Assembly: GCA_002733125.1 (NCBI GenBank) | Contig: NVUM01000008.1 | Location: 77,690 to 114,017, forward strand | From: Porticoccus sp. | Lineage (GTDB): Bacteria; Pseudomonadota; Gammaproteobacteria; Pseudomonadales; Porticoccaceae | Direction: 5' to 3' | DNA: 36,328 nt | Shown here: piece by piece, positions 6,979-33,587 of the stretch | How positions within the stretch are numbered: the stretch's first letter is position 1 | Layout: every line of letters begins with the position of its first letter | The notes under the pieces: model-generated | Seen by the model: the letters and a program-made list of their open reading frames with translations, nothing else | Databases searched by the model: none | Told to the model about the DNA's origin: nothing | Translations under genes and position numbers: made by a program

Positions 6979-7012
6979 AATCAAATTCCCAAAAAAGGTC
7001 TTTTTCTGAAGC

Positions 7013-7048: not shown

Positions 7049-7118
7049 TTAACTTTATGAATTACAAAGAATTTTTTTCCTTCCTGTGGCAAGTTAACAG
7101 CTAATTACATAGGTAAGT

Positions 7119-7132
7119 TTGACTTCGATCAA
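7119..7132. promoter_or_regulatory. FNR/DNR box between porin and moaA copy 2
   Basis: TTGAC-TTCG-ATCAA matches nine of the ten half-site bases of the FNR consensus TTGAT-N4-ATCAA. For the plus strand a TAAACT -10 (7154-7159) puts the start near 7167, so the box centre is close to -41.5, the class II activator position. For the porin on the minus strand a weaker TAACTT -10 (7091-7096) gives a mirror-image distance. Confidence 0.75.
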
Positions 7133-7215
7133 CGAATCGAGGCTGTCGACTCCTAAACTAGAGATCACCTGAAGAAAACACGTTTTTACACTGAAGCCGT
7201 TGTGGAGCCCCAGCT

Positions 7216-8220: not shown

Positions 8221-8231
8221 CGGGAATCAGG

Positions 8232-9440: not shown

Positions 9441-9592
9441 CTGGCAAGTTGTTAAAAACTATCTACAACGTTACCACCGCTTTAAAAGCAGGCATAAAAA
9501 ATACCCACTGATTCTAGGTGCGTCATTTTTAAACGCAGCAAGCTGCTCTCTCTCGGAGGGGGATTATGGGTCTGGTTGTGATTAAGGCTGAT

Positions 9593-17016: not shown

Positions 17017-17026
17017 GATAGTTTCC

Positions 17027-17722
17027 TCAGTTTGCCCAGCGAATGGCTACGCTGTCGTTAGGGGATCGTTGTGGGGGTTGCGGCGTATTGGAGGGGCAGC
17101 TATCCCCGCCCCCAGCACCAAAGGTGACCGCTTCTTCCTCCCAGATTTTGTCCAGTGCCTCGGGGGTGTCGTCTCGCTGTTCACTGGCAGTTTTTGCGCG
17201 CAGTTCCTCGACGTCTACTGGAACGCCGCTGATCATCAGCAAGCTGTCAAAGAGTGTGTCGTAGGGTGAACCGCGCTCCTTGAGACGTGCGCTCAGCAGG
17301 CCGAGGATATGGGCCACATCCGCCAGTCCCTCGCGGGCCTCCATATCCGGGCGGTGGGCCAGGAATTCCAGATAGAGGGGAATGAAATCCGGCAATTCCC
17401 GCACGTCAATGTGGAAGCCCTGGCTGCGGTAAACAGCCAGCAGATCCACCATGGCCTGGCCGCGGTCACGGGATTCACCGTGCACGTGTTCGAACAGCAG
17501 CAGTGACAGGGCGCGACCCCGGTCAAACAAACCGGTATAGCATTCCTGAGCATCCATCAGGTCGCCGTCATAAATCTGATGCAGCAGGGCCGTGAGCCGC
17601 TGGCGCATGTCAGGAGAAATCTCCCGCGCGTCCAGAATCACAGATTCCAGTTCAGCCACAAGCGGTTGCAGTTTGGCGCTGGGATAATCCATCAGTCGGG
17701 AGATGATTTTGAGAATATCCAT
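17027..17722 (-). CDS. narJ: Nitrate reductase assembly chaperone NarJ
   Basis: A 231-residue cytoplasmic helical protein of the NarJ/TorD chaperone family. It binds apo-NarG and holds it back from the membrane until the molybdenum cofactor and iron-sulfur centres are in place; it is not part of the final enzyme. The N-terminal L-M-D-Y-P-S and the central D-L-L-A-V-Y-R-S-Q-G-F region with P-D-F-I-P-L-Y-L-E-F-L match NarJ. It begins 3 bp after narH and ends 10 bp before narI. Confidence 0.94.
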   Translation of the reverse strand: MDILKIISRLMDYPSAKLQPLVAELESVILDAREISPDMRQRLTALLHQIYDGDLMDAQECYTGLFDRGRALSLLLFEHVHGESRDRGQAMVDLLAVYRSQGFHIDVRELPDFIPLYLEFLAHRPDMEAREGLADVAHILGLLSARLKERGSPYDTLFDSLLMISGVPVDVEELRAKTASEQRDDTPEALDKIWEEEAVTFGAGGGDSCPSNTPQPPQRSPNDSVAIRWAN

Positions 17723-17725
17723 GTT

Positions 17726-19267: not shown

Positions 19268-19279
19268 TGTGATGCCTCC

Positions 19280-22200
19280 TTAAACGTCCTGGGGAAGTGG
19301 TTGCGGCAGGTCGTCGGTATCCGAGCCCTCCAGCCAATCCACCTTGTTCATTTTGCGCACCACCACGAACTCGTCGCGGTTGCAGCCGACGGTGCCGTAG
19401 TAGTTGAAGCCATAGGACTGTTGTGCGTAGCCACCGATCATATGCGTCGGTTTCATGACTATCCGGGTCACCGAGTTGTGGTGGCCACCCCGGGTGCCGG
19501 TCATTTCCGAGCCGGGGGTATTCACGATGCGCTCCTGGGCGTGGTACATCATCACCATGCCCTCGTTGACCCGCTGGCTGACCACTACCCGGCAGGCGAT
19601 GGCGCCGTTGACGTTGAATACTTCCACCCAGTCGTTGTCCTCAATACCGGCTTTTTGTGCATCCACTTCGCTCATCCAAATAATCGGCCCGCCCCGGGAC
19701 AGGGTCAGCATCAGCAGGTTATCTGAGTAGGTGCTGTGGATGCCCCATTTCTGGTGGGGTGTGATCCAGTTCAGAACAATCTCGGTATGGCCGTTGGGTT
19801 GCTTGCCCTTCACCAGGTCGATGGACTTGGTGCAGATCGGCGGTCGGTAGGACACCATTTGTTCGCCGAATGCCTGCATCCACCTATGGTCCTGGTAGAA
19901 CTGCTGACGCCCGGTGATGGTACGCCAGGGAATCAGCTCATGGACGTTGGTGTAACCGGCGTTATAGCTGACGTGTTCATCCTCCAGCCCTGACCAGGTG
20001 GGCGAGGAGATGATCTTGCGCGGCTGTGCCTGGATGTCGCGGAAGCGAATTTTTTCATCGTGCTTTGGTTCCGCAAGGTGCTTGTGGTCGCGCCCCGTGA
20101 GTTTACCGAGCGCATCCCAAGCTTTAACCGCCACATTGCCGTTGGTCTCCGGCGCCAGACTGAGTACCATTTCGGCGGCGTCGATAGCGGTATCGATGCG
20201 CGGTTGTCCGTGACTGATACCCTCTTCGGTAACGGTGTAATTCAGTTTGCGCAGCAGTTCCACTTCTTCATCGGTGTTCCAGCCGATGCCCTTGCCACCG
20301 TTACCGAGTTTTTCCAGCAGCGGTCCCAGGGAGGTAAACTTTTTGTATGTATTGGGGTAGTCCCGCTCCACCGCCACGATGTTCGGTGCGGTTTTGCCGG
20401 GAATCAGCTCGCACTCGCCCTTCTTCCAGTCCTGTACCTCGAAGGGTTGCGACAACTCTCCGGGAGTATCGTGGAGGGTGGGCACGGTGACGATATCGGT
20501 CTCCACGCCGAGGTTGTCGTTCAGGGCGGAGATCTCCGAGAACTTTTTGGCGATGCCCTTGTAGATGTCCCAGTCAGAGCGCGCTTCCCAGGCTGGATCG
20601 GCGGCTTTTGACAGCGGGTGGATAAAGGGGTGCATGTCCGAGGTGTTGAGGTCGTCCTTCTCGTACCAGGTGGCGGTAGGCAACACGATATCTGAGTACA
20701 GGGCGGTGGAGGACATGCGGAAGTCCAGGGTGACCACCAGGTCCAGTTTGCCCTCGGGACCTTGTTCCTCAAAGTCGATTTCCTTGGGAATCAGGTCACT
20801 ACCGCGGGCGAAGTTATCCTCGTTCATAACACCGTTGTTGGTGCCGAGCAGGTACTTGAGCATGTACTCGTGGCCCTTGCCGGATGAGCCGAGCAGGTTG
20901 GATCGCCAGATAAACATATTGCGTGGAAAGTTGGCGGGGTTGTCCGGTTGTTCAGAAGCAAATTTCAAATGCCCGGATTTTAGTTGCTGGACGACATAAT
21001 CCTTCGGATCCATGCCGGCTTCAGCAGCTTCACGGGCAACCTGTAGCGGGTTACGGTTGAGCTGCGGCGCCGAGGGTAGCCAGCCCATGCGTTCGGCCTT
21101 GATGTTGTAGTCGAGCATGTGCTCCGGCCACTGGGATTTGTCCGCCAGTGGTGACAACACCTCGTGGACACTGACTTTCTCGTGGCGCCATTGGGAGCTG
21201 TGATTGTAGAAGAAGCTGGTGCCGTTCATCTGGCGCGGCGGACGGCTCCAGTCCAGACCAAAGGCCAATGGCAGCCAACCGGTCTGCGGGCGCAGTTTTT
21301 CCTGGCCCACGTAATGTGCCCAGCCACCACCGCTCTGGCCGACACAGCCGCACATGATGAGCATATTGATCAGCGCGCGATAGCTCATATCCATGTGATA
21401 CCAGTGGTTCATGCCGGCACCGACGATGATCATGGATTTGCCGCTGGTTTTGTTGGCGTTGTCGGCGAACTCCCTGGCCACCTGGATAACGCGGTCTCGG
21501 GGCACGCCGGTGATTTTCTCCTGCCAGGCGGGGGTGAAGGGGCTGTCGTCGTCGTAACTGGCGGCGACATTGCCACCGCCGAGGCCGCGGTCGATGCCGT
21601 AGTTGGCCATGGTCAGGTCGTAGACGGTGGCGACTCTGGCGGTGGAACCGTCGCCCAGTTGAATCTCCCGCACCGGCACCAGTCGAGGCAGAACATCGTC
21701 GTGCTCGCAGTAGTTCCAGTGCTCGTTGCGTTCATCTGCGGCAAAGTGCGGGAAGGCCACAGCCACGGTGTTGTCACCAATCAGCGAGAGCTGCAGTTTG
21801 ACATCATTGCCATTCTCCCCCTCACGTGGCTCGATATTCCATTTGCCCTGTTCGCCCCAGCGGTAGCCGACGGAGCCCAGCGGTGATACCAGTTCGCCAC
21901 TGGGTTCATCCAGTGCGATGGTTTTCCACTCAGGGTTGTTGTCCTGGCCGAGTTTGCCGTCCAGGTCGGAAGCTCGCAGGAAGCGGGTGGGGCAGTAGTG
22001 GCCGTCTTTCTCCTCCAGCAGCACCAGCATCGGCATGTCGGAGTAGCGGCGCACGTACTCGGTGAAGTACTCACTGGGTTTCTCCAGGTGAAACTCTTTG
22101 AGAATCACGTGACCAAAGGCCATGCCGAGGGCCGCATCGGTACCCTGTTTAGGGCTCAGCCAGATATCGGTCAGCTTCGCCACTTCGGCGTAGTCGGGGG

Positions 22201-23047
22201 TGATGGCGACGGTTTTGGCACCTTTGTAACGCACTTCGGTAAGGAAGTGAGCATCGGGGGTCCGGGTCTGGGGCACGTTGGAACCCCAGGCGATGATGTA
22301 GTTGGAGTTGTACCAGTCGGCGGACTCCGGTACATCGGTCTGCTCGCCCCAGGTCATCGGCGAGGCCGGTGGCAGGTCGCAGTACCAGTCGTAGAAGCTC
22401 AGGCACACGCCACCGATCAGCGACAGGTAGCGGGAGCCGGCGGCATAGGACACCATCGACATGGCGGGAATCGGGGAGAAACCGATGATGCGATCGGGAC
22501 CGTACTGTTTGGCGGTATACACATTGGCGGCGGCGATGATTTCATTGACTTCCTCCCAGGAAGATCGAATGTAGCCGCCCAGGCCGCGTGTGCTCTTGTA
22601 GCTCTTGGCCCGTAGCGGGTCTTCGACGATAAAAGCCCAGGCATCTACCGGGTTGTCGAACCGCTTGCGGGCGTCGCGCCACAGTTTCAACAGCGGCTTG
22701 CGCACCTTGGGGTACTTGAGGCGGTTGGCGCTGTAGATGTACCAGGAATAGCTGGCGCCTCGGGGGCAGCCGCGGGGTTCGTGGTTGGGCAGGTCCGGGC
22801 GGGTGCGCGGGTAATCGGTCTGCTGGGTTTCCCAGGTGATCAGACCGTTCTTGACGTAGATTTTCCAGCTGCAGGAACCGGTGCAGTTGACGCCGTGGGT
22901 GGAGCGCACAATCTTGTCGTGCTGCCAGCGCTGGCGGTAGCTGTTTTCCCATTCACGATTCTGGTTGCGGGTCTCGCCGTGACCGTGGGCAAACTCTCCT
23001 GTGACGGTTTTCTTGAAGAACTGCAAGCTGTCGATGAAGTGACTCAT
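19280..23047 (-). CDS. narG: Respiratory nitrate reductase alpha subunit NarG
   Basis: A 1255-residue molybdoenzyme of the DMSO-reductase family that reduces nitrate to nitrite with bis-MGD in the cytoplasm. The N-terminal FS0 cluster motif has H51, C55, C59 and C94, with His as first ligand as in membrane-bound Nar enzymes. W-Y-N-S-N-Y-I-I-A-W-G-S-N-V-P-Q-T-R-T-P-D-A-H is the conserved active-site stretch that carries the Mo-ligand Asp. No twin-arginine signal is present, as expected for NarG. It follows narK2 by 57 bp, which contain a small hairpin. It depends on MobA/MoaA/MoeB from the left part of the window. Confidence 0.98.
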   Translation of the reverse strand: MSHFIDSLQFFKKTVTGEFAHGHGETRNQNREWENSYRQRWQHDKIVRSTHGVNCTGSCSWKIYVKNGLITWETQQTDYPRTRPDLPNHEPRGCPRGASYSWYIYSANRLKYPKVRKPLLKLWRDARKRFDNPVDAWAFIVEDPLRAKSYKSTRGLGGYIRSSWEEVNEIIAAANVYTAKQYGPDRIIGFSPIPAMSMVSYAAGSRYLSLIGGVCLSFYDWYCDLPPASPMTWGEQTDVPESADWYNSNYIIAWGSNVPQTRTPDAHFLTEVRYKGAKTVAITPDYAEVAKLTDIWLSPKQGTDAALGMAFGHVILKEFHLEKPSEYFTEYVRRYSDMPMLVLLEEKDGHYCPTRFLRASDLDGKLGQDNNPEWKTIALDEPSGELVSPLGSVGYRWGEQGKWNIEPREGENGNDVKLQLSLIGDNTVAVAFPHFAADERNEHWNYCEHDDVLPRLVPVREIQLGDGSTARVATVYDLTMANYGIDRGLGGGNVAASYDDDSPFTPAWQEKITGVPRDRVIQVAREFADNANKTSGKSMIIVGAGMNHWYHMDMSYRALINMLIMCGCVGQSGGGWAHYVGQEKLRPQTGWLPLAFGLDWSRPPRQMNGTSFFYNHSSQWRHEKVSVHEVLSPLADKSQWPEHMLDYNIKAERMGWLPSAPQLNRNPLQVAREAAEAGMDPKDYVVQQLKSGHLKFASEQPDNPANFPRNMFIWRSNLLGSSGKGHEYMLKYLLGTNNGVMNEDNFARGSDLIPKEIDFEEQGPEGKLDLVVTLDFRMSSTALYSDIVLPTATWYEKDDLNTSDMHPFIHPLSKAADPAWEARSDWDIYKGIAKKFSEISALNDNLGVETDIVTVPTLHDTPGELSQPFEVQDWKKGECELIPGKTAPNIVAVERDYPNTYKKFTSLGPLLEKLGNGGKGIGWNTDEEVELLRKLNYTVTEEGISHGQPRIDTAIDAAEMVLSLAPETNGNVAVKAWDALGKLTGRDHKHLAEPKHDEKIRFRDIQAQPRKIISSPTWSGLEDEHVSYNAGYTNVHELIPWRTITGRQQFYQDHRWMQAFGEQMVSYRPPICTKSIDLVKGKQPNGHTEIVLNWITPHQKWGIHSTYSDNLLMLTLSRGGPIIWMSEVDAQKAGIEDNDWVEVFNVNGAIACRVVVSQRVNEGMVMMYHAQERIVNTPGSEMTGTRGGHHNSVTRIVMKPTHMIGGYAQQSYGFNYYGTVGCNRDEFVVVRKMNKVDWLEGSDTDDLPQPLPQDV

Positions 23048-23070
23048 AGCGTTACTCTCTCTTGATCGGT

Positions 23071-23084
23071 GGCAGTAAGCTGCC
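23071..23084. repeat. Small hairpin in the narK2-narG gap
   Basis: GGCAG-TAAG-CTGCC forms a five-pair stem 24 bases before the narG start codon. There is no T-run. It could mark an mRNA processing site that separates transporter and reductase segments; that is only an inference from position. Confidence 0.3.
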
Positions 23085-23104
23085 GACTCGGGTAGTGGCT
23101 TCAG

Positions 23105-24769
23105 TTACGGGTTGTAAAATTCGTCATCCTTGTGGAGGGTGAAATTCTCACCACATTTCGGGCAGTGAATTTCGGTGTCGCTGCGGTTTTTGCGCAGGTA
23201 AAACCACCAGTTAATACCGATACACACTGCATAGAAGGCGGCGAAACCGATCAGTGCCACTTCCGGGGTGGTGGCGGTGATCTGCTCTCCAATAACCTTG
23301 GGGATGTAGAACGCGCCGTACGCGGCCACCGCGGAAGTCCAGCCCAGTACCGGGCCGGCCTGCTCTTTTGGGAAGACCATGGCGATGGTGCGGAAGGTGG
23401 AGCCGTTGCCGATACCGGTGGCGGCGAACAGCACCAGGAACAGCAGGAAGAAGGGTAGGAAGAACTCCTCAGGGGTCGCGGAGTTGTAGGCGGCTTTCAT
23501 GTAGTAGGCCACGCCGAGGGCGCTGGCCACCATCACCACAGAGCAGATCTGGGTGACCATGGCGCCGCCCAGCTTGTCGGCAATCCAGCCGCCCACCGGG
23601 CGGATCAGCGCACCGATAAAGGGTCCCATCCAGGCATACATCAGGGCGCTGGGGCCGTTGGCGTTGATGGTGTCGTGGGTCATCACGCCGTCCACCATCA
23701 GGTGCTGGTAGCCGAAGATCACCTTGATGGCCAGCGGGAAGGAGGCGGCAAAGCCGATAAACGAGCCGAAGGTCATGGTGTAGATAACACTCATCACCCA
23801 GGTGTGCGGGTTGTTGAAGATCTTGTACTGTCGGGTCAGGCTGGTGCCAATGGCGCCGGGCAGCATTTTCAGCCAGAACACCGTGGAGCCGATCACCAGC
23901 ACCATGACGATTTCTTTTGGTACACCAAAGCCGGAACCGTTGGCGGATTCCGGTAACAACAGCCACAGGCCCACCGCGGCGGTGACGAAACCGATCAGCA
24001 GCATACCTGTGATCATGCCAAAACTGACCACCGTGTTCGGGAGGTCGGGCGACACCTCCTGGGAGCGGATGTTGTTCATGCCGAACCAGCCGGCGAAGGC
24101 CAGTGGAATCAGCAGCACCAGCCAGATGTAACCGGCGTTGTGAATCCAGGTTTCACTGCCTGCGGGTATCTTGCCGATCAGGGTGCCGGAGGTGTTTTCC
24201 AGAATCATGGAATCACCGCCGAACAGACCAAACGTCATCACCAGGGGGATCAGGATCTGCATGGTGGTGACCCCGAAATTGCCGAGGCCCGCGTTCAGAC
24301 CCAGTGCCAGCCCCTGTTGCTTTTTGGGGAAGAAGAAGCTGATGTTGGACATGGATGATGCGAAATTGCCGCCACCGAAGCCGGACAGCAGCGCCAGCGC
24401 CTGGAACACCCACAGTGGCGTGTTTTTATCCTGCAGGGCGATACCGGTACCGACGGCGGGGATCATCAATAGCGCAGTGGTGAAGAAAATGGTGTTGCGC
24501 CCGCCGCACAGCCGGATAAAAAAGCTGCTGGGTATTCGCAGGGTGGCGCCGGTCAGGCCGGCAATGGCGGTGAGGGTGAACAGCTCGGATTGGGCGAATG
24601 GAAAACCCAGGTTCAGCATCTGTACCGTGATAATGCCCCAGTAGAGCCACACGGCAAATCCGCACAGCAGGCTGGGAATCGATATCCAGAGATTTCGAGT
24701 GGCAATCTTTTTGCCTTCTGATTCCCAGAACCGGGTATCTTCGACATCCCATTTTTGTAGATCGGCCAT
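23105..24769 (-). CDS. narK2: Nitrate/nitrite transporter, NarK2 type
   Basis: A 554-residue major-facilitator protein of the nitrate/nitrite porter family with about twelve to fourteen helices. The N-terminal R-I-P-S-S-F-F-I-R and G-F-G-G-G-N-F-A-S-S-M-S-N-I-S-F-F-F-P motif, then G-L-N-A-G-L-G-N-F-G, match the NarK2 branch, usually a nitrate/nitrite exchanger. The final 20 residues after the last helix are hydrophilic and contain C-P-K-C (C536, C539) plus a His, unusual for a porter. It follows narK1 by 25 bp and precedes narG by 57 bp, so transport and reduction are expressed together. Confidence 0.93.
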   Translation of the reverse strand: MADLQKWDVEDTRFWESEGKKIATRNLWISIPSLLCGFAVWLYWGIITVQMLNLGFPFAQSELFTLTAIAGLTGATLRIPSSFFIRLCGGRNTIFFTTALLMIPAVGTGIALQDKNTPLWVFQALALLSGFGGGNFASSMSNISFFFPKKQQGLALGLNAGLGNFGVTTMQILIPLVMTFGLFGGDSMILENTSGTLIGKIPAGSETWIHNAGYIWLVLLIPLAFAGWFGMNNIRSQEVSPDLPNTVVSFGMITGMLLIGFVTAAVGLWLLLPESANGSGFGVPKEIVMVLVIGSTVFWLKMLPGAIGTSLTRQYKIFNNPHTWVMSVIYTMTFGSFIGFAASFPLAIKVIFGYQHLMVDGVMTHDTINANGPSALMYAWMGPFIGALIRPVGGWIADKLGGAMVTQICSVVMVASALGVAYYMKAAYNSATPEEFFLPFFLLFLVLFAATGIGNGSTFRTIAMVFPKEQAGPVLGWTSAVAAYGAFYIPKVIGEQITATTPEVALIGFAAFYAVCIGINWWFYLRKNRSDTEIHCPKCGENFTLHKDDEFYNP

Positions 24770-24794
24770 GATGGCTCTCCTCGTGAGTACAGTC

Positions 24795-26078
24795 TTATAA
24801 CGTTAAAAAATCGTCGGCTTTTGCCTGATCCAGCCGGTGCCGAAATTGATCAAGTTTGATGGCGTAAAACATCAGCACCATGCAGCCCGCCAGCACTCCG
24901 TAGAGCAACATGAAGCAGGAACTGCGAATGCCGGTGAGGTCAGCCGCCAAACCGAACAGGATGGGCAGCGAGAAGCCGCCGAGAGCGCCGATGGCGGCCA
25001 CCGCGCCGCCTACCACACCGACGTTATCCGGGTAATAGTCGTAGATAATCCGGTAGATGCTGGCCTTGCCGAAGCCCATCGCCAGCCCCATCACGAAGGT
25101 CAGTAGCACGAACACCCACAGGTTGATGTGGATGTTGAGGAACAGATTCTGCTCGATGCCGTGGATGGTCATGGTGGTGGGCGGGTAGGAGAGGAAAAAC
25201 AGGCACACCAGACACACCCAGAACACTGACCAGTTGATTCGGCGGGCGCCAAAGTTGTCGGCGAACCAGCCCCCCAGGGCGCGCACAATGGCCGCTGGCA
25301 GGGTGAACAGCATGGTGACAAAAGAGGCGGTTTTCAGGTCGAGGCCGTATTCGCCCACATAGTACTGGGGCAGCCACAGGGTCAGGGCCAGGAAACCGCC
25401 GAACACAAAATAGTAGTAGAGCCCGAAGCGCCACACCCGCAGTTCCCGCAGGGGGCGCATTTCCTCCGTCCAGGATTGCCTGGACCTGGTTCGTTGGCTT
25501 CTGTCCGAGGGCGACCAGCTAAAGAACCAGAACAGTATCGCGATTGCCAGCAGCACAGAGCCGTAGATATTGGGTACTGCCTGCCAACCATAAGAGAGGA
25601 TAATCAACGGTGCCACCAGGTTGGTGATGGCGGCCCCGGCATTGCCGGCACCGAAGATACCCATGGCGGTGCCTTGTTGTGAGGCCGGGAACCAGCCGGA
25701 AACCAGGCTGATCCCGGTGGCAAAGGTGCCTCCGGCGATACCCAGTACCAGGCCGATACTGAGAAACTGCCCAAAGGTCCTGGCGTAGGGGAGGGTGAAC
25801 AGCGCCAGCGCCACAATCAGCGATTGCACAAAAAATACCAGCCGACCGCCAAAATGCTCCGCCAGCACGCCGCTGATCAGTCGGGCCAGAGCACCGGTAA
25901 GAATCGGTGCCGCCACCAGCAGACCGAAGGCGGTTTCGCTCAGACCCAGGTCAGCTTTGATCTGCATGCCGAGAATGGCAAACAGGGTCCAGGTGGCAAA
26001 ATGGGCGGCAAAGGCGGTTGTGCAGATACCGAGGCTGTACCATTGAAGTGGCCGGTTTTGTGACTGGACTGTGGTCAT
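24795..26078 (-). CDS. narK1: Nitrate transporter, NarK1 type
   Basis: A 427-residue major-facilitator protein with about twelve helices and the shorter NarK1-type length. The nitrate-signature Gly-rich stretches are present: G-I-F-G-A-G-N-A-G-A-A-I-T-N (about residues 139-152) and a later G-V-V-G-G-A-V-A-A-I-G-A-L-G-G. NarK1-type members are generally proton/nitrate symporters that start import before nitrite is available for exchange. It is the first gene of the narK1-narK2-narGHJI-ppiC operon; a promoter with FNR and NarL sites lies upstream, facing narX. The predicted leader is about 24 bases and the ribosome site is weak. Confidence 0.92.
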   Translation of the reverse strand: MTTVQSQNRPLQWYSLGICTTAFAAHFATWTLFAILGMQIKADLGLSETAFGLLVAAPILTGALARLISGVLAEHFGGRLVFFVQSLIVALALFTLPYARTFGQFLSIGLVLGIAGGTFATGISLVSGWFPASQQGTAMGIFGAGNAGAAITNLVAPLIILSYGWQAVPNIYGSVLLAIAILFWFFSWSPSDRSQRTRSRQSWTEEMRPLRELRVWRFGLYYYFVFGGFLALTLWLPQYYVGEYGLDLKTASFVTMLFTLPAAIVRALGGWFADNFGARRINWSVFWVCLVCLFFLSYPPTTMTIHGIEQNLFLNIHINLWVFVLLTFVMGLAMGFGKASIYRIIYDYYPDNVGVVGGAVAAIGALGGFSLPILFGLAADLTGIRSSCFMLLYGVLAGCMVLMFYAIKLDQFRHRLDQAKADDFLTL

Positions 26079-26204: not shown

Positions 26205-26306
26205 GATCGATTTTTTTAAAAAACCTTAAATAACATAAGGTTGTTTTTGGTTGTGGGGATGGGTGGAGTTGACTGCTCCGAAAGTGGATATTTGGTGGTA
26301 ATAACC

Positions 26307-28178
26307 ATGGCAATGATGCTGACCGGCAGGAAATTGCGTTTTTCCCAATCGATTGCGATTCAGGTGTTGATCCCGATGTTGGTGATCGGTCTGCTTGCCC
26401 TGTCGAGCATGCTGGTCTCCCTGCTGGTGACGCTTAACACCCAGCACGATGCCGAGGCGATCAATATTGCCGGTTCGATGCGGATGCAGACCTACCGTAT
26501 TGCGGTACATCTGCAGCAGGCCGTGGCGGGAGAGGCTGATTCGAAAGATTTGATTGACACCCTGGCGGAAGAGCACCGCACTTTTTCTGAGAAGCTGTAT
26601 CAATCGAGCATTGCCAGGGTGGCGGGCGAGCGCAGTGACATCAGTCTGAAACGCACCTACCAGCGGGTGGTCACTAACTGGGAGCAGCATATGGCCCCGT
26701 TACTGTTGTCTCTGGGTTCTGCTGAACAGGGGAGTCTGGCGGCGGCCAGTCGGGAATACCTGGGGCATGTCGAGGAACACGTGGGCGATATTGACAGGTT
26801 GGTGCTGAGTATCCAGCAGAATACCGAGGAGAAGATCGAGTTGCTGGGCATGTACGAGGGGCTCAGTATCTTTCTTTCCTTTCTGGCGCTGGTGTTCATT
26901 GTCATGCGTACCGACCAGAATCTGGTGCGGCCCCTGAAGGATCTGGTGCGGGCGGCGGAACACACCAGCGTCGGCGATTTTTCCTACCGAACCTACTATG
27001 AAGCGGTCAATGAGATCGGCCTGCTGTGCAGTACTTTCAACGATATGTCCGCCAGCCTGGCGCGCCACTACCGCAAACTGGAGGACATGGTGGATGAAAA
27101 AACCGCCCAGCTGCAGCGCTCCAACCAGATGCTGGATTTCCTCTACAACACTGCGCAGCGACTGTCGGAAGGGGTGGGTGGCAGCCATGAACCCTTCAGG
27201 GACATTATGGCCGACCTGAAGACGCTGACTGGTATTCCGCGTATTTCCCTGTGCCTGGCCAATGAGGCCAACACCGACAAATATGATTTGATTCTGCCTG
27301 CCGGAGAGGAACACGATTGTCTTATCCGCGACTGTATAAACTGTTTCATGCAGCCTGGCAGTGATCATCAGACTCAGGGTGAGTCGTCATTTGCCATCGA
27401 GGATGCCAGCGATAATTTTGGCTTTCTGTATATCAACACTGGCCCCAACCTGGTGCTGGAGCCATGGCAGCAGCGGCTGATCGAAGCCGTGGTGGAACAT
27501 CTCGCGGCGGCCATGGCGCTGCACTACCGGGAAGGGCTGAGTCGGCGGGTAATGCTGTTCGAGGAGCGCTCCATTATCGCCAGAGAATTGCATGACTCTC
27601 TGGCTCAGTCCCTGTCCTACATGAAGATGCAAGTGGCACGGCTGGTGCGGCTGTTTGATCGGGAGGCCCCGGAGGAGCAGCTGCGCGAAGGCTTGGAGGA
27701 TCTGCAGCAGGGATTGAATGCCGCCTACCGGCATTTGCGGGAACTACTGACGACCTTCCGACTGAAACTGGATGCCCCGAGTCTTTACCAGGCATTGAAA
27801 GCCACAGTGGATGAATTTGATCGCCAGAGTGAGCAGACTGAGGTGAAGCTGGAGTTCCACCTGGGACACTGTCCGTTGACCCCCAATGAGGATATCCATG
27901 TTTTGCAGATTATCCGCGAGGCCATCACCAATGCCTTTAAGCACGCCGGGGCCAGTTGTATCGAATTGCGCTGTGAGCGAGGTGCCGATAACCGCGCAGT
28001 ATTCCGGGTGCTGGACGATGGTGTGGGGATTGCCACTGACCCGGTCAAGGAGCACCACTACGGGCTTTCTACCATGCGGGAACGGGCGGAACTGTTACAG
28101 GGTACCCTGGATATACACCCCGGGGAGGAGGGGGGTACCGAAGTGGTTCTCAGTTTTATGCCAGATGCCTTTTCCTGA
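26307..28178 (+). CDS. narX: Nitrate/nitrite sensor histidine kinase NarX
   Basis: A 623-residue membrane kinase. The chosen ATG 26307 puts the first helix at residues 15-42; earlier in-frame codons (TTG 26241, ATG 26259) add an unlikely extension. The P-box I-N-I-A-G-S-M-R-M-Q-T-Y-R-I-A (52-66) is the nitrate-sensing signature. A second helix is at about 184-200, then a HAMP linker, a central module with a Cys group (C338, C343, C346), the HisKA_3 box with H429 in R-E-L-H-D-S-L-A-Q-S, and an ATPase domain with E-A-I-T-N-A-F-K-H-A. It phosphorylates NarL, encoded 104 bp downstream. It is divergent from narK1. Confidence 0.95.
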   Translation: MAMMLTGRKLRFSQSIAIQVLIPMLVIGLLALSSMLVSLLVTLNTQHDAEAINIAGSMRMQTYRIAVHLQQAVAGEADSKDLIDTLAEEHRTFSEKLYQSSIARVAGERSDISLKRTYQRVVTNWEQHMAPLLLSLGSAEQGSLAAASREYLGHVEEHVGDIDRLVLSIQQNTEEKIELLGMYEGLSIFLSFLALVFIVMRTDQNLVRPLKDLVRAAEHTSVGDFSYRTYYEAVNEIGLLCSTFNDMSASLARHYRKLEDMVDEKTAQLQRSNQMLDFLYNTAQRLSEGVGGSHEPFRDIMADLKTLTGIPRISLCLANEANTDKYDLILPAGEEHDCLIRDCINCFMQPGSDHQTQGESSFAIEDASDNFGFLYINTGPNLVLEPWQQRLIEAVVEHLAAAMALHYREGLSRRVMLFEERSIIARELHDSLAQSLSYMKMQVARLVRLFDREAPEEQLREGLEDLQQGLNAAYRHLRELLTTFRLKLDAPSLYQALKATVDEFDRQSEQTEVKLEFHLGHCPLTPNEDIHVLQIIREAITNAFKHAGASCIELRCERGADNRAVFRVLDDGVGIATDPVKEHHYGLSTMRERAELLQGTLDIHPGEEGGTEVVLSFMPDAFS

Positions 28179-28282: not shown

Positions 28283-28939
28283 ATGAACGAGTCTAAAAGC
28301 AAATTGATCCTGGTGGATGACCACCCGTTACTGCGCAAGGGCGTACGCCAGCTATTGGCGCTGGAGGATGATATGGAGGTGGTCGGTGAAGCCAGTAATG
28401 GTCGCGATGCGGTTGAATTGGTCAAGCGACAGGGACAGGACGTAGACCTCGTGTTGCTCGATCTGAGCATGAAAGGCATGGATGGCATCGAGACTCTCCG
28501 GGAAATGCGCGAGGCGGACGTGTGCTGCCGTATTGTGGTATTTACGGTTTCCGATGAGAGCAAAGATATGCTGGCGGCGTTCAAGGCAGGAGCCGATGGC
28601 TATCTGCTGAAAGATATGGAGCCGGGAGAGCTGGTGGAAAGAATCCGCGATGCCTGTATCGGCAAGATGGTACTGTCACACGAGCTCACCGAGGTGCTGG
28701 CCAAGGCTTTTCGTGATAACGCCCGCCAGGAACAGGATTCAGGCTACGATGCCCTGACTCGTCGCGAAAAGGAAATCCTGCGCATGGTGTCTGCCGGGCT
28801 GAGTAACAAGCTGATTGGTCGCGAACTCGATATTGCTGAGGCGACGGTCAAGGTCCACGTTAAACACCTGCTGAAAAAACTCGGTTTGCGCTCACGGGTA
28901 GAGGCCGCTGTCTGGGCGGTGGAACACAAGAAAAATTAA
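28283..28939 (+). CDS. narL: Nitrate response regulator NarL
   Basis: A 218-residue two-component regulator. The receiver domain has the acidic pair D12/D13, phospho-acceptor D60 (V-L-L-D-L-S-M) and K110. The C-terminal LuxR-type helix-turn-helix follows L-T-R-R-E-K-E-I-L-R-M-V-S-A-G-L-S-N-K. Phosphorylated by NarX, it should bind TACYNMT heptamers, which are visible in front of narK1, the third transporter, the porin and uspA. The ribosome site is AAGAGG before ATG 28283. Confidence 0.96.
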   Translation: MNESKSKLILVDDHPLLRKGVRQLLALEDDMEVVGEASNGRDAVELVKRQGQDVDLVLLDLSMKGMDGIETLREMREADVCCRIVVFTVSDESKDMLAAFKAGADGYLLKDMEPGELVERIRDACIGKMVLSHELTEVLAKAFRDNARQEQDSGYDALTRREKEILRMVSAGLSNKLIGRELDIAEATVKVHVKHLLKKLGLRSRVEAAVWAVEHKKN

Positions 28940-28979: not shown

Positions 28980-29465
28980 ATGGAAACATCTTTTACCCGT
29001 CGCGCGCCCTGGCTGGCACGTGCCGAAACCCTGGTTTTCCCGCTCTGTCGCCAGGTGCCTTTTCGAATACAGCAATGGTTGCTGGAAAATGTACTTCAGC
29101 AATTGCTGGCGGAGGCTTCTGCTGAAGGTGAGCTGGCCTTCTTTGAAGGCCGAACCCTGGAAATTCGGGTGACCGATATGGGTGTCGGTTGGCTCATCGT
29201 CGGCTGTCATCCCCGTTTATTGGTCTTGCCGCCGAACGACACAGCCGATGTCACTATTCTGGGTCGAGCCAGAGCGTTTGTGTTACTCGCCTCCGGTCGA
29301 GAAGATCCCGATACGCTGTTCTTCCGTCGCGAGCTTTGCCTGGAGGGTGATACTGAACTGGGCCTGGGAGTGAAAAACCTTCTGGACAGTATAGAACGCG
29401 ATGTCCTGCCCCTGCCGATAAGACGGTTGTTGTCTGGTGCGGGGGCCATGGCGAATGGTATTTAA
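28980..29465 (+). CDS. ubiT: UbiT-like SCP2-domain factor for O2-independent ubiquinone synthesis
   Basis: A 161-residue protein with an SCP2 lipid-binding domain. The block [26 protein letters not shown] is the characteristic UbiT (YhbT) ending. UbiT binds isoprenoid quinone intermediates and works with UbiU and UbiV in the pathway that makes ubiquinone without oxygen. It lies 40 bp after narL, so it is probably co-transcribed with the nitrate sensor pair, while ubiUV are on the opposite strand 2.5 kb away. Its TAA overlaps the stop of the converging VF530-type gene within the palindrome TTTAAA. A GGAG ribosome site precedes ATG 28980. Confidence 0.88.
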
Positions 29466-29704
29466 ACGATTCTCCGGGGGGACTGGCTGTCAAAGGTCGA
29501 GAGATACAAACCCTCGACCTTTTCTCTGGCCCACGGGGTTCTACGCAGGAAAGTCAGTGATGACTTGATGGACGGGGCATTTTTAAAGCACTTGATATCA
29601 ATTCGCCGGGCCAGGCCATCCCAATCGTAGTGCTCCAGCAGCGCTGTGACAATTTGCTGCAAGGTTACGCCATGTAGGGGGTTGTTCGGTTGCTGATTGG
29701 TCAT
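29462..29704 (-). CDS. VF530-type small DNA-binding family protein (DUF2132)
   Basis: An 80-residue protein. [13 protein letters not shown], followed by [25 protein letters not shown], is the conserved VF530/DUF2132 sequence. The family is annotated as DNA-binding from structural work; its cellular role is not established. It is 84 bp after the P450 gene on the same strand and overlaps the ubiT stop codon by four bases in convergent orientation. Confidence 0.87.
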
Positions 29705-29788: not shown

Positions 29789-30949
29789 TTAGGCTGTTTT
29801 GAATCGCAATGGCAATGAGGAAAAACCGCTCGCGGGATAGACAGCATTGATTGCTGGTTTGCCCGCTACAGGCTCGATCCACTCGGTGTGTTCGAACAGT
29901 GCCTCCATGACTGCCAGCAACTCCATTCGAGCCAGCGGTGCACCGGGGCAGACATGGATGCCCGCACCATAAAGCAGATTTTCGGTCGGGTCGCGATCCA
30001 GGCGGAAACTGTCCGGGCTATCGAAGACATCACCATCCCGGTTGGCGGAAATCCAGTTCAGTGAGATTCGCTCCCCGGCACCAATCTTTCGGCCGCCAAT
30101 TTCCACCGGGCAGGTTGTGATGCGCCGGTTGTCCACCAGGGGGCCGTGGATCCGCAGAATCTCATCAATGGCCCCGGGCAACAGGAATGGTTGCTCGCGC
30201 AACCGTTTCTGTACCTCAATGTGTTTCGCCAGATAGCGAACCAGTACGCCGATTGCTGCAGAAATGGTACCAATTTCTCCGACGGTCCAATTCCGTAAAA
30301 TGCTCGTCATCTCTTTATGACTTAATGGGCGTCCCCAGACTTCCTCGTGCATCAGGTCGGCGGTGATGTCATCACCAGGTTTTGCGCCAGCCTGACGACG
30401 CGTTTCAAGCATGTCGACGACGAGGGTTTCAAATTCGCGTGCAATATCCGCCATCGCTGTCCGGTCTCCAGCGCGGGTGGCTTCGGTATTCTTTCTGACC
30501 CATTGGACTAGCGGATCGTGCAGGCCAGGTGGCCAGCCGAGAAATGCACATTGAACCCGTACCGCAAAGGGCTGGGCGATATCGGCCATCAGTTCCACGT
30601 CGCTTTGAGCCGGTACTTGGTCAAGCAGTTCTGTGATGATTTCCCGGCAGGAAGGTCCGAATGCCTCCATTCGGGCCGGCGCAAAGTAGGGCTCGATGAT
30701 ATGCCGGTAGACTGTATGTTCCGGGGGATCCATACCATTCGGGATGGAGAGGTGCCGGGACACCACGCTGCTGAAGGTGTCGTGATCGTGAAGTACCCGG
30801 GTAAGGTCCCGATGCCGGAATAGTGACCACTGCACGACCTCGTTGTAAGCGACAGGGCATTGTTCACGCATGTTGTCGTAAGCGGCGCGTTGGTTGCGAA
30901 GAACCGCTTCCGATTGGGGATCCCAATCGGATCGGAGTTTGTCAGTCAT
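29789..30949 (-). CDS. Cytochrome P450 with atypical I-helix, downstream of ubiUV
   Basis: A 386-residue soluble bacterial P450. Start ATG 30949 has AAGGAG directly upstream; a longer frame to 31036 has none. The ExxR pair is E263/R266. The heme loop Y-G-A-G-I-H-V-C-P-G has the thiolate ligand C334. The I-helix reads W-T-V-G-E-I-G-T-I-S; counting back from K-H before the J-helix, T228 takes the place of the conserved Thr, but the preceding acidic residue is G227. CYP55 nitric oxide reductase likewise lacks the acid. No redox partner is encoded in the window. It follows ubiV by 114 bp, probably in the same transcript. Function unknown; O2-using monooxygenase chemistry would be odd in this setting. 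Confidence 0.88.
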   Translation of the reverse strand: MTDKLRSDWDPQSEAVLRNQRAAYDNMREQCPVAYNEVVQWSLFRHRDLTRVLHDHDTFSSVVSRHLSIPNGMDPPEHTVYRHIIEPYFAPARMEAFGPSCREIITELLDQVPAQSDVELMADIAQPFAVRVQCAFLGWPPGLHDPLVQWVRKNTEATRAGDRTAMADIAREFETLVVDMLETRRQAGAKPGDDITADLMHEEVWGRPLSHKEMTSILRNWTVGEIGTISAAIGVLVRYLAKHIEVQKRLREQPFLLPGAIDEILRIHGPLVDNRRITTCPVEIGGRKIGAGERISLNWISANRDGDVFDSPDSFRLDRDPTENLLYGAGIHVCPGAPLARMELLAVMEALFEHTEWIEPVAGKPAINAVYPASGFSSLPLRFKTA

Positions 30950-31063: not shown

Positions 31064-31960
31064 TTACGTGAAGTCCATACCCGGCTTGCCATACCAGTAG
31101 CCATTGCAAAATGTGGCTGCTCCCTGGTCACTGGCAATGAGTTGATTGCTGAGCGTTTCTCCTCGACGTATCCGGTCAAATTGCTCCAGCACCTGGAATG
31201 TGTTGCTGCTGTTTGGACTGATGCGAAGAATATCAACACCAATAGCTGCCATGTCATGGTATTCCGCCAGCAAATTGTGAATATCGCCAGAGAGTGTCTG
31301 AATGCCATTCAGGGTAAATAGCGACGTATTTTCACGCGTGTGTACGGGAATACCGTCTGGATAATCCAGGCAACTCAGCTGGCAGTCATCCTTTGGCAGG
31401 TTGCGGTTGCGGGCGGTAAAACAGCGAGCGGAGTAGGCCAGTGGCAAATGCCCATAGCTGAATATTTCCGTTTGTACCTGTTGGGCAAGACCGAACTGCT
31501 GGACTTCTTCGAGGATACCTTGCAACGTGTGGCGGCTCAGCTCTACCGGCATCACCCAGCGCATCATGCCCGCCTGTTGCAGGACACGCAGGCTGGCGCT
31601 GTTGTAGATATTGATGGACGGACCGGCGACAAATGGCAGATTTCGCTCCGAAAGCAGTTCCACCGCTGCCATGTCGTTGGCCTCCATCAGGCAGCCACTC
31701 TGATCGCAGAGCTTGCGCAAGGTTGCCAGGTCGGCACGTGACTCGATCAGTGCCAGGGTGGAGAGCACTACCTGTTTACCCGCCTCGGCCAATGGTGCTG
31801 CCATTTCCAGCCACTCCGATGGGTGAACCTCGCGCCGCTTTGGGCAAACAGTTTCCCCCAGATAGACGATATCAGCGGGGGAAGCCAGTGCCTGGTGATA
31901 AAAGTCTTCCACCTGTTGTCGCGGCCAGTAATAGAAAATTGGTCCCAGGGACAATTGCAT
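31064..31960 (-). CDS. ubiV: O2-independent ubiquinone hydroxylation protein UbiV
   Basis: A 298-residue U32-peptidase-family protein. The four iron-sulfur ligands known for UbiV are all present at C39, C180, C193 and C197, the same positions as in E. coli. V-Y-L-G-E-T-V-C-P-K-R-R is the family start block. With UbiU it carries out ring hydroxylations of ubiquinone precursors without O2. It starts 26 bp after the ubiU stop on the same strand. It would supply ubiquinone as electron donor for NarI under anoxia. Confidence 0.95.
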   Translation of the reverse strand: MQLSLGPIFYYWPRQQVEDFYHQALASPADIVYLGETVCPKRREVHPSEWLEMAAPLAEAGKQVVLSTLALIESRADLATLRKLCDQSGCLMEANDMAAVELLSERNLPFVAGPSINIYNSASLRVLQQAGMMRWVMPVELSRHTLQGILEEVQQFGLAQQVQTEIFSYGHLPLAYSARCFTARNRNLPKDDCQLSCLDYPDGIPVHTRENTSLFTLNGIQTLSGDIHNLLAEYHDMAAIGVDILRISPNSSNTFQVLEQFDRIRRGETLSNQLIASDQGAATFCNGYWYGKPGMDFT

Positions 31961-31986: not shown

Positions 31987-32982
31987 TTATTGCCAGGGAC
32001 GTGAGTAGGCGCCGAAGGTGGTTTGACTGCCCTCGGAAACCCTGGAAAGAGTATCGAACCACTCTCTGCGAGGGGTGAAGCATTCGCCGGCATTGTGATA
32101 ATGATCCAGTGCTTCCCGCCACACGCTTACCACCTGCGCCACATAGGCGGGACTGCGTTGGCGCCCTTCGATCTTGATGGCTTTGATGCCGATCTCCGCC
32201 AGCTGGGGAATCAACGCCAGGGTGTTCAGGCTGGTGGGTTCCTCCAAGGCATGATAGGTCTGCTCTTCCACCTTGAAACGGCCTTTGCAGAGGGTGGGGT
32301 AACCAGCGTTTTCGCCGGCCTTGAAGCGGTCGATCAACACCCCGTTGAGGCGTGACTCCCGGCCACTGGCTGTCTCTTGCCAGCGCACCGCTGAAGCAGG
32401 TGAGCAGGCGCCACAGGTGTTGGGGGATTCGGCGGTGACATAGGATGACAGATGGCAGCGGCCCTCGGCCATGATGCACAGACTGCCAAAACCGAATACC
32501 TCCAGATCCACCGGGCTGACAGCCGACAGTTGCTGCACCTGGGACAGGGAAAGCACTCGCGGCAGCACGGCACGGCGAATGTCGAACCGGCGTTGGTAAA
32601 AGGATAGTGCGGCAGCGTTGGTGGCCGATCCCTGGACCGATAGATGCAGAGCGAGTTGCGGATGTCGTTCCCGGGCGTAGTCGAGTACACCCAGGTCGGC
32701 GACGATCAGTGCGTCAACGCCCAGGTGCGCGGCGCGATCTACCGCTGTCTGCCAGGCGCTCCAGTTGTGCGGTTGTGGATAGGTGTTGATGGCCACGAAT
32801 AACCGGACATTGTGCCTGCGGGCGTGTTCCAGGGCCTGGTCAGCCTTGCTGTCATTAAAGTTGAGGCCGGCGAAATGACGGGCGTTAGTGGCGTCCCGAA
32901 AACCGATGTAGACAGCATCTGCACCATTGTCCACGGCGGCCTTGAGTGCGGGCAGGCTGCCCGCTGGACAGACGAGTTCCAT
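31987..32982 (-). CDS. ubiU: O2-independent ubiquinone hydroxylation protein UbiU
   Basis: A 331-residue U32-peptidase-family protein beginning M-E-L-V-C-P-A-G-S. The [4Fe-4S] ligands C169, C176, C193 and C232 match the E. coli UbiU positions exactly. It forms a heterodimer with UbiV. Start ATG 32982 has a GAGG ribosome site. The odd point is upstream: a strong terminator-like hairpin ends only 20 bases before the start codon, so transcripts must read through it or start inside it. Confidence 0.95.
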   Translation of the reverse strand: MELVCPAGSLPALKAAVDNGADAVYIGFRDATNARHFAGLNFNDSKADQALEHARRHNVRLFVAINTYPQPHNWSAWQTAVDRAAHLGVDALIVADLGVLDYARERHPQLALHLSVQGSATNAAALSFYQRRFDIRRAVLPRVLSLSQVQQLSAVSPVDLEVFGFGSLCIMAEGRCHLSSYVTAESPNTCGACSPASAVRWQETASGRESRLNGVLIDRFKAGENAGYPTLCKGRFKVEEQTYHALEEPTSLNTLALIPQLAEIGIKAIKIEGRQRSPAYVAQVVSVWREALDHYHNAGECFTPRREWFDTLSRVSEGSQTTFGAYSRPWQ

Positions 32983-33001: not shown

Positions 33002-33032
33002 AAAAAAACGTCCGACTGAAACGGACCGGACG
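33002..33032 (-). terminator. Terminator after uspA, 20 bases before ubiU
   Basis: On the minus strand the stem CGTCCG/CGGACG (33027-33032 with 33009-33014) with a 12-base loop is followed by seven T (33008-33002). It follows the uspA stop by about 45 bases. Because ubiU begins at 32982, it may act as a partial terminator or attenuator. Confidence 0.75.
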
Positions 33033-33075
33033 CAAAATCCCTGGAGTAGGGGTGAAAGCTTGGTGTTAACAGACC

Positions 33076-33507
33076 CTAGTTTGTCACCGGCACCATTAAG
33101 ACCTTCTGCCGGGCCCGGTGAATCACGCCGGGGGCTGTTCCGCCGATCAGGGTATCGTAGAAAGGGCTGTGACCGTGGTTGCCGATGACGATCAGGTCTG
33201 CCTGTAGACGGTCCGCAGCCTGTATCAATTGATCGACGGGCTTCCCTTCCAGCATGACTGCACGGCAGTTGATACCCCGGGAAGACAGGTCGTCGGCCAT
33301 GTTCTTCAGCCGTGTCAACGCCTCATCGTAGGACAGCTGTATTTCTTTCTTCAGCTCTTCAGCAGTGGCACCTTCCATACCCGGTAATTCAGTTTCCACT
33401 GTTGCCAGAATCAATACTGCACGGTACTGCATAGCCAGATCGATGGCCGCATCGAGCACACTCTCTGCATTTGAATCCAGATCAATTGCCGCAAGTATGG
33501 TTTTCAT
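33076..33507 (-). CDS. Universal stress protein UspA family
   Basis: A 143-residue single-domain Usp. The start at ATG 33507 follows GAGGAG; a longer frame to 33573 would run into the FNR box. The N-terminal K-T-I-L-A-A-I-D and the ATP-binding motif G-N-H-G-H-S-P-F-Y-D-T-L-I-G-G-T-A near the C-terminus (G-x2-G-x9-G-T) place it among ATP-binding members. Usp proteins help survival in anoxia or energy stress; in Pseudomonas several are induced by the FNR homologue Anr. An FNR box sits 67-80 bp upstream of the start, with a NarL heptamer further up. ubiU follows on the same strand. Confidence 0.88.
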   Translation of the reverse strand: MKTILAAIDLDSNAESVLDAAIDLAMQYRAVLILATVETELPGMEGATAEELKKEIQLSYDEALTRLKNMADDLSSRGINCRAVMLEGKPVDQLIQAADRLQADLIVIGNHGHSPFYDTLIGGTAPGVIHRARQKVLMVPVTN

Positions 33508-33573: not shown

Positions 33574-33587
33574 TTGATGTACGTCAA
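33574..33587 (-). promoter_or_regulatory. FNR/DNR box upstream of uspA
   Basis: TTGAT-GTAC-GTCAA matches nine of ten FNR half-site bases. A CAGAAT on the minus strand at 33546-33551 could serve as -10, with a start near 33539 and the box centre at -41.5. The leader would be about 31 bases with the GAGGAG ribosome site inside it. Confidence 0.72.

What the first reader, a model, noticed from the sequence alone, without database searches (positions are those of the whole stretch)
29789..30949. A P450 with a non-canonical oxygen-activation site encoded behind ubiUV in an anaerobic respiration island
Seen: ubiU, ubiV and the P450 run in the same direction (26 and 114 bp gaps) in a region of FNR/NarL-controlled genes. 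The heme-thiolate loop and ExxR pair are intact, but the I-helix reads G-E-I-G-T-I where most P450s have (A/G)-G-x-(D/E)-T-(T/S); Thr228 is kept and the acid is Gly227. Established: CYP55 nitric oxide reductase lacks the same acid and reduces NO with NAD(P)H rather than activating O2. Inference: this enzyme may reduce NO or another N-oxide, use peroxide, or take part in anaerobic quinone metabolism. A P450 tied to O2-independent ubiquinone synthesis would be a new association.
Basis: partly seen in the sequence, partly recalled or inferred. Interest (0 to 1): 0.78.

Follow-up and report, generated by a model that had tools for sequence, protein, structure and literature searches.

The report
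Nitrate-respirer P450 with rewired active site
A bacterium's cytochrome P450 belongs to a distinct bacterial family whose oxygen-activating motif is consistently altered and whose genes often sit near nitrate-respiration and nitric-oxide genes, so it may handle nitric oxide rather than help make ubiquinone as first proposed.

Summary
Window 29789-30949 (minus) encodes a 386-aa P450 with intact Cys334 and E263xxR266, I-helix G-E-I-G-T (the usual acid is Gly227), 26 and 114 bp behind ubiU-ubiV.

It belongs to a distinct P450 clade (100/100). Across 87 members (60 lineages at 80% identity) the acid column is never acidic, Glu replaces the conserved I-helix Gly in 85, and Asn220, Trp221 and Thr228 are invariant. 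The heme loop is altered too.

The UbiUV link does not generalise: UbiU lies within 10 kb in 6 of 87 loci (3 of 60 lineages), and 6 of 35 P450-bearing isolates show no UbiU. The wider link is to nitrate/NO genes: nar, narK, nnrS, norB or nos within 10 kb in 24 of 87 loci, against 0 of 70 control windows. NnrS occurs in 35 of 35 isolates against 177 of 369 class genomes. Yet 53 of 87 loci carry no marker at all.

Best reading: an NO- or N-oxide-reducing heme-thiolate enzyme, convergent with CYP55 rather than homologous to it as an orthologue. The reaction is inferred, not shown; ordinary oxygenation is the main rival.

The parts
29789..30949 (-). P450 gene, 386 aa, family signature RNWTxGEx(G/S/A)T; the one PF00067 match in the own assembly
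31064..31960 (-). ubiV
   Evidence: NF047965 384.6 bits over cut-off 275
31987..32982 (-). ubiU
   Evidence: NF047963 560.1 bits over cut-off 440
33008..33033 (-). terminator-like hairpin plus T-run between usp and ubiU, also present in L020 and L021
   Evidence: 5 terminator-like sites found in the stretch, 3.6 expected; conservation seen
33076..33507 (-). universal stress protein gene (ATG at 33507)
   Evidence: PF00582; start
33574..33587 (-). FNR-like box TTGACGTACATCAA, beginning 80 bp upstream of the usp start; same box and distance in L020 and L021
   Evidence: 7 such matches in the window, 3.3 expected, so weak alone
29462..29704 (-). small VF530-type gene downstream of the P450, same strand
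   Evidence: PF09905
28980..29465 (+). ubiT (SCP2), convergent with the P450
   Evidence: NF047962 133.1 bits over cut-off 46.9
28283..28939 (+). narL-type response regulator
   Evidence: NF007935 300.1 bits over cut-off 250
26241..28178 (+). NarX/NarQ-type sensor kinase (below the equivalog cut-offs)
16327..26078 (-). two narK-type genes, narG, narH, narJ, narI
   Evidence: NarG TIGR01580; NarH and NarI; NarJ; NarK family below cut-off
8232..9440 (+). nnrS, about 20 kb from the P450
   Evidence: PF05940 343.6 bits
9593..10066 (-). cytochrome c'-type protein
   Evidence: PF01322 29.4 bits over cut-off 26.5

Best explanation
This is a member of a distinct bacterial P450 family associated with nitrate respiration and nitric-oxide exposure, and its most likely reaction is reduction of NO (or a closely related N-oxide) at a heme-thiolate centre, giving N2O or another reduced product. 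Shown: a monophyletic family with a rewired I-helix (Glu225 in, acid 227 out, Thr228 kept) and a rewired thiolate loop (Tyr327, Cys334-Pro335-Gly336), enriched near nar, narK, nnrS, nos, Rrf2, DUF2249 and YtfE/hemerythrin genes. Inferred: ferric heme binds NO; electrons come from NAD(P)H, through a ferredoxin or NAD-binding reductase (such genes lie near some members) or directly as in CYP55; Glu225 with Thr228 supplies protons to an Fe-HNO-type intermediate; the Cys-Pro-Gly loop strengthens electron donation by the thiolate, as recalled for the L358P mutant of P450cam. In the window's organism it may remove NO formed as a by-product of nitrate-to-nitrite respiration. The ubiUV adjacency is then a shared place in the anaerobic-respiration island, not a shared pathway.
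For: Motif: 0 of 87 acids at column 227, Glu225 in 85 of 87; of 22 comparison P450 rows 18 have an acid at 227 and 0 have Glu at 225. Clade 100/100, one Deinococcus relative included. Context: nar, narK, nnrS, quinol norB or nos within 10 kb in 24 of 87 loci (14 of 60 lineages); with YtfE, Rrf2, hemerythrin, DUF2249 and Ubi markers added, 34 of 87 (22 of 60); 0 of 70 control 20-kb windows, 30 of them from nine genomes whose P450 locus does have markers. Loci with full flanks: 15 of 44 against 0 of 70, Fisher p 1.1e-7, or p 1.3e-4 against the 30. NnrS in 35 of 35 isolates against 177 of 369 class genomes. Plasmid loci narGHJI-ppiC-narK-orf-P450-PAS in Paraburkholderia and Caballeronia. Quinol norB within 2 kb in L041 and L076. 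PF00175 reductase gene directly after the P450 in L026 and L037. FNR-like sites (up to 1 mismatch) upstream of the P450 in 9 of 85 against 55 of 1364 other genes, p 0.010. CYP55A1 lacks the same acid.
Against: No activity is shown. 53 of 87 loci have none of the 13 marker groups within 10 kb (many contigs are short). Ten of the 34 positive loci rest only on YtfE, Rrf2, hemerythrin or DUF2249, which are weaker NO markers. The marker set was chosen partly after seeing neighbours of some members, and several markers come from one P450 locus (L099), so the enrichment is partly circular. The first 40 controls come from four genomes whose own P450 loci have no marker either (0 of 4), and half of the other 30 come from one genome. 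Among 181 immediate neighbours NnrS is only the commonest family, 4 of 90 in one set, with others at 3 (top 25 shown). AryC and TbtJ1 also lack the acid. At up to 2 mismatches the FNR-like enrichment vanishes (17 of 85 against 265 of 1364), and the 9 include 3 Zobellella and 2 Halopseudomonas. Quinol-type NorB exists in 12 of 35 isolates, so the P450 is not their only route; cytochrome-c NorB was not tested. G029 carries the P450 without NnrS.
Confidence: 0.42

Rival explanations
1. An O2- or peroxide-dependent oxygenase for an unidentified organic substrate, needed under low-oxygen nitrate-respiring conditions. Glu225 takes over the role of the missing acid, with electrons from a ferredoxin.
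For: Thr228, ExxR and the Cys loop are kept; ordinary P450 fold closest to EryK, AryC and CYP109; AryC and TbtJ1 also lack the acid; an acid two positions away is almost invariant; a 4Fe-4S-type ferredoxin gene lies 0.5-3.7 kb from the P450 in 5 of 87 loci.
Against: Context is enriched for anaerobic nitrate/NO genes; no catabolic or biosynthetic partner recurs among the families listed.
Confidence: 0.3
2. A heme-thiolate NO sensor or scavenger that binds NO without catalytic turnover.
For: Neighbours include NO-linked proteins of unclear biochemistry (NnrS, DUF2249); HTHP heme-protein genes sit beside four members.
Against: Invariant distal residues and a complete P450 fold suggest catalysis; no fixed regulatory partner was seen.
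Confidence: 0.12
3. A sulfur-linked role, such as the sulfane-sulfur signalling suggested for the P450 Hden_0697 of the Hyphomicrobium sox locus.
For: PMC10451225 (passages) proposes such a role for that P450; the Deinococcus relative lies among sulfate-assimilation and siroheme genes.
Against: Whether Hden_0697 belongs to this family was not tested; no sulfur-oxidation family shows among those listed.
Confidence: 0.05
4. A partner of UbiU-UbiV in O2-independent ubiquinone synthesis, as first proposed.
For: Directly behind ubiUV in the window, L020 and L021; UbiU within 10 kb in three lineages, more than random placement would give (p 0.0025 under a simple model); UbiU in 29 of 35 isolates against 92 of 369 class genomes over cut-off.
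Against: 57 of 60 lineages lack the linkage; no UbiU in 6 of 35 isolates and 3 of 7 class genomes with the P450; UbiU is far commoner than the P450 in the class sample (92 against 7 of 369).
Confidence: 0.04

Closest known systems
CYP55A1, fungal P450nor (NO reductase)
   Same: P450 fold; no acid in the I-helix acid column; Thr kept; Lys291 where this family has Arg275
   Different: 26% identity; outside the clade; nearest to CYP105; Gly, not Glu, at column 225; Phe and Cys-Ile in the heme loop
CYP113 (EryK, AryC), CYP109 and TbtJ1 P450s
   Same: closest by sequence (30-33% over the aligned chain parts of CYP109B1, AryC and TbtJ1) and fold (TM about 0.81-0.86); AryC and TbtJ1 also lack the acid
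   Different: no RNWTxGE motif; Phe in the heme loop; biosynthetic or broad-substrate oxygenases (partly recalled)
Putative P450 NO reductases of Nitrosocosmicus (PMC6775971, passages)
   Same: prokaryotic P450s suggested to make N2O, said there to be polyphyletic with CYP55
   Different: not compared here by sequence; evidence there is transcription and isotopes
UbiU-UbiV-UbiT pathway (PMC6747719, passages)
   Same: shares the island in the window
   Different: 4Fe-4S hydroxylases; no P450 in the passages seen; most members of this P450 family lie elsewhere

Membership tests
Cytochrome P450 superfamily | P450 fold, ExxR, Cys-ligand loop | tested here: met
CYP55 / P450nor | groups with CYP55A1 in sequence and tree | tested here: not met
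   CYP55A1 itself is a long branch
CYP55 / P450nor | I-helix lacks the acid and keeps Thr | tested here: met
   (shared trait, also lost in AryC and TbtJ1, not proof of kinship)
CYP55 / P450nor | direct NAD(P)H-dependent reduction of NO to N2O | not testable with these tools
   needs an enzyme assay
CYP152 peroxygenases | Arg-Pro in place of the acid-alcohol pair (recalled) | tested here: not met
   columns 227-228 are (G/S/A/V)-T
O2-independent ubiquinone pathway (UbiUVT) | conserved linkage to and co-occurrence with UbiUV | tested here: not met
   3 of 60 lineages; no UbiU in 6 of 35 isolates
Nitrate-respiration/NO-linked gene set | genomic enrichment near nar, narK, nnrS, norB, nos | tested here: met
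   24 of 87 loci against 0 of 70 control windows; marker choice partly post hoc
Nitrate-respiration/NO-linked gene set | induction by anoxia, nitrate or NO | tested here: inconclusive
   FNR-like sites enriched at up to 1 mismatch, not at 2; no expression data

The most novel reading that the evidence does not exclude
A second, independently evolved P450 nitric oxide reductase family, bacterial and widespread in denitrifiers and nitrate respirers, using a repositioned I-helix glutamate and a Cys-Pro-Gly thiolate loop, and so an uncounted soluble source of N2O.
Probability: 0.28. Interest if true: 0.87.

Novelty: new variant of a known kind. Interest (0 to 1): 0.6.

Why it matters
P450s are normally read as O2 enzymes, and the well-known P450 NO reductase is fungal. 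A coherent bacterial family that has swapped the oxygen-activation acid for a shifted glutamate and that tracks nitrate and NO genes makes it testable whether bacteria evolved a soluble P450 route for NO, which would bear on N2O budgets and NO defence. It also shows that the ubiUV neighbourhood was a misleading clue.

Tried and rejected
UbiUV partnership: rejected as a general role. CYP55 orthology: rejected. A first ORF clustering by length gave shadow ORFs and was replaced by a composition-scored caller; that caller trimmed some starts, so 9 of 87 P450 rows have under 350 residues. A first marker count with loose thresholds (46 of 87 loci within 10 kb) let generic ABC transporters and regulators in; the stricter count is used. 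Its first 40 controls came from genomes whose own P450 loci carry no marker, so 30 more were drawn from marker-positive genomes; all 70 were placed at fixed steps, not at random. The promoter scan gave 1 site against 3.1 in shuffles. No model coordinates were available, so the direction of the Glu225 side chain was not measured. The phylum sample gave 5 of 398 genomes, the own one included, all in the window's class, and no new context was drawn from it. Own genome: no cytochrome cd1, Cu nitrite reductase only below cut-off, no quinol NorB at 1e-30; the assembly is 87% complete. Literature: no held paper has both 'cytochrome P450' and 'ubiUV'. Listings of searches pairing P450 with NnrS/NsrR (30 of 56 shown), narGHJI (14 of 14), nir/nor/nos (25 of 47), HdN1 (10 of 40), UbiU/UbiV (14 of 14), denitrification terms (20 of 71; 20 of 24; 12 of 185) showed no title on this family. 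The library lacks most subscription papers, and supplements, where CYP names would be, could not be read.

Full report
OBSERVATION. UbiU, UbiV, UbiT and NarL pass their NCBIfam cut-offs; the gaps are 26 and 114 bp. The P450 passes Pfam and is the one PF00067 match in the own assembly, 2.26 Mb and 87% complete. ExxR is E263/R266, the thiolate Cys334. The I-helix reads RNWTVGEIGTISA. Alignments put G227 on the acid column and E225 on the conserved Gly.

FAMILY. A search of 369 class genomes at E <= 1e-40 gave 9 with a match; 7 carry this family and 2 (L009, L010) carry AGNETT/AGHETT P450s. A scan of named genomes gave 265 relatives, of which the best 80 were kept; its two patterns lie outside the I-helix. 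The nearest named relatives, at 92-97% identity, are Porticoccus and Cellvibrionales MAGs. Hosts include Halopseudomonas, Stutzerimonas, Zobellella, Polaromonas, Rhodoferax, Paraburkholderia, Thauera, Microvirga, HdN1 and MAGs labelled Planctomycetota, Verrucomicrobia and Acidobacteria (binning not checked). In 87 rows (80, 6 whole-genome loci, window; 9 rows under 350 residues) N220, W221, G224, T228, E263, R266, R275 and C334 are invariant; column 227 is G65 S15 A6 V1; column 225 is E85 H2. Counting one row for each of 60 lineages at 80% identity: column 225 E58 H2, column 227 G44 S11 A5.

COMPARISON. Of 22 other P450 rows 18 have an acid in column 227; the exceptions are CYP55A1 (Ala), AryC (Leu), TbtJ1 (Leu) and L120 (His). 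None has Glu at 225 (G19 A3). The family has Tyr327 in 83 and Trp in 4 where 22 of 22 have Phe, Pro335 after the Cys in 85 of 87 (2 of 22), and Arg275 in 87 of 87 (4 of 22; Lys291 in CYP55A1). The 47-row tree gives 24 family rows plus a Deinococcus relative 100/100 on a stem of 1.08; CYP55A1 lies outside, joined to another long branch at 90/50. CYP55A1's best non-self solved relatives are CYP105-type; this family's are CYP113/CYP109-type. The AlphaFold2 model is good (pLDDT 87.9, pTM 0.90); top Foldseek hits are EryK, AryC, P450PL2 and CYP109, and no P450nor entry is among the 50 listed.

NEIGHBOURHOOD. With strict thresholds 34 of 87 loci (22 of 60 lineages) have at least one of 13 marker groups within 10 kb, each of the 34 with a marker other than Ubi; 24 of 87 (14 of 60) have a core marker (nar, narK, nnrS, quinol norB, nos). 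Ten rest only on YtfE, Rrf2, hemerythrin or DUF2249. Of 70 control 20-kb windows none had a marker: 40 from four P450-bearing genomes whose own P450 loci have none either, and 30 from nine genomes whose P450 loci do (15 of the 30 from one genome). Loci with full flanks: 15 of 44 with any marker, 13 of 44 core; Fisher p 1.1e-7 and 1.2e-6 against all 70, 1.3e-4 and 5.0e-4 against the 30; by lineage 10 of 31 and 8 of 31. These tests do not correct for kinship, and markers were picked partly after neighbours had been seen. Per group within 10 kb, loci/lineages: UbiU 6/3, UbiV 6/3, UbiT 5/2, NarGHJI 9/4, NarK 10/4, NnrS 10/8, quinol NorB 3/3, Nos 6/3, YtfE 6/6, Rrf2 10/8, hemerythrin 5/4, DUF2249 9/7, NrdD 0. 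On a Paraburkholderia plasmid the order is narGHJI, ppiC, narK, orf, P450, PAS, then DUF2249, hemerythrin, nnrS, Rrf2; Caballeronia has the same nar run and hemerythrin, DUF2249 and Rrf2 genes but no nnrS in the stretch shown.

PARTNERS. Among 181 immediate neighbours from about 49 lineages no partner is fixed; NnrS is commonest in the first set (4 of 90), four other families reach 3 in one set or the other, and only the top 25 families of each set were shown. An NAD-binding reductase gene directly follows the P450 in L026 and L037. A ferredoxin gene lies within 4 kb in 5 of 87 loci (L011, L016, L038, L042, L067; three of them confirmed by Pfam). Electron supply is therefore open.

CO-OCCURRENCE. 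In 35 P450-bearing isolates (the non-MAG genomes among the 80 loci): NnrS 35 of 35, all below 1e-50, UbiU 29 of 35, NarG 22 of 35, quinol-type NorB 12 of 35. Class background: NnrS 177 of 369 at 1e-20, UbiU over cut-off 92 of 369. The 7 class genomes with the P450 have UbiU in 4 and NnrS in 6. Isolates without UbiU: L054, L057, L058, L062 (Paraburkholderia/Caballeronia), L067 (Microvirga splendida) and L092 (HdN1). Four isolates (Microvirga) are alphaproteobacteria and so outside the background class. Denitrifier enrichment in public genomes and kinship are not corrected for.

REGULATION. An FNR-like box begins 80 bp upstream of usp in the window, L020 and L021, but such matches are not rare in the window (7 found, 3.3 expected). 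A 9-pair hairpin with a T-run lies between usp and ubiU and is kept in both sister loci, so usp and ubiUV-P450 may be separate units. The scan found no minus-strand terminator-like site between ubiU and the P450 start. Upstream of the P450, FNR-like sites with up to 1 mismatch occur in 9 of 85 loci against 55 of 1364 other genes (p 0.010); exact sites 2 against 11; with 2 mismatches there is no enrichment (17 against 265).

INTERPRETATION. The data show a distinct P450 family with a rewired distal and proximal heme site and a nitrate/NO context in part of its loci. They do not show the reaction. NO reduction is favoured because the acid that normally serves O-O cleavage is gone family-wide, as in CYP55, while the genes often lie with NO-handling systems. 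AryC and TbtJ1 lack the acid too, so oxygenation stays the main rival. The role of Cys-Pro in thiolate donation is recalled from P450cam mutant work, not from a call; so are mechanistic details of P450nor beyond those in PMC6775971.

LITERATURE. Read as passages only: PMC6775971, PMC12423496, PMC10451225, PMC11582611, PMC7998510, PMC6747719, PMC6710368. None describes this family in the passages seen. PMC7998510 gives a range of one to six P450s with HdN1 highest, in line with the 6 matches.

Noticed in passing
33008-33033 minus: A hairpin with a T-run just upstream of ubiU is kept in sister loci L020 and L021; possible terminator or attenuator of the ubiUV-P450 unit.
   Followed up: partly
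5707-10066: The island also holds nnrS, a cytochrome c'-type gene and an alginate-export-type porin gene; an FNR-like site lies at 7119-7132 between the porin and moaA genes.
   Followed up: partly
1893-2918 and 7216-8220: Two moaA-like genes with very similar N-terminal stretches about 5 kb apart (7216-8220 is TIGR02666 over cut-off; the other by sequence similarity only).
   Followed up: no
33873-35345 plus: A third NarK-family transporter (TIGR00886 just over cut-off) upstream of usp, besides the two beside narG.
   Followed up: no
L012:9075-9374, L061, L067:12087-12317, L068:12154-12384: A hexameric tyrosine-coordinated heme protein (HTHP) gene lies near the P450 in four loci from two lineages (L012 and L067 confirmed by Pfam, the others by clustering); in L012 it lies between ubiV and the P450.
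   Followed up: partly
L011, L016, L038:2588-2911, L042:8350-8673, L067:14851-15189: Ferredoxin genes 0.5-3.7 kb from the P450; candidate electron donors.
   Followed up: partly
L099:7394-7804, L100:9394-9804, L054, L057, L058, L062: A protein of about 136 aa annotated 'ribonucleotide reductase subunit alpha' lies between narK and the P450; the name looks too large for its size.
   Followed up: no
L105:8004-9116: Deinococcus ficus relative (37% identity) with GDLGS in the I-helix, in a siroheme and sulfate-assimilation gene run.
   Followed up: partly
L014, L015, L104: A subgroup reads RNWxAGHGT, one residue shorter, with His near the Glu position.
   Followed up: partly
L101:10001-11133: The Ensifer canadensis plasmid copy matches in two pieces and reads out of frame late in the gene; possibly broken or a sequencing error.
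   Followed up: no
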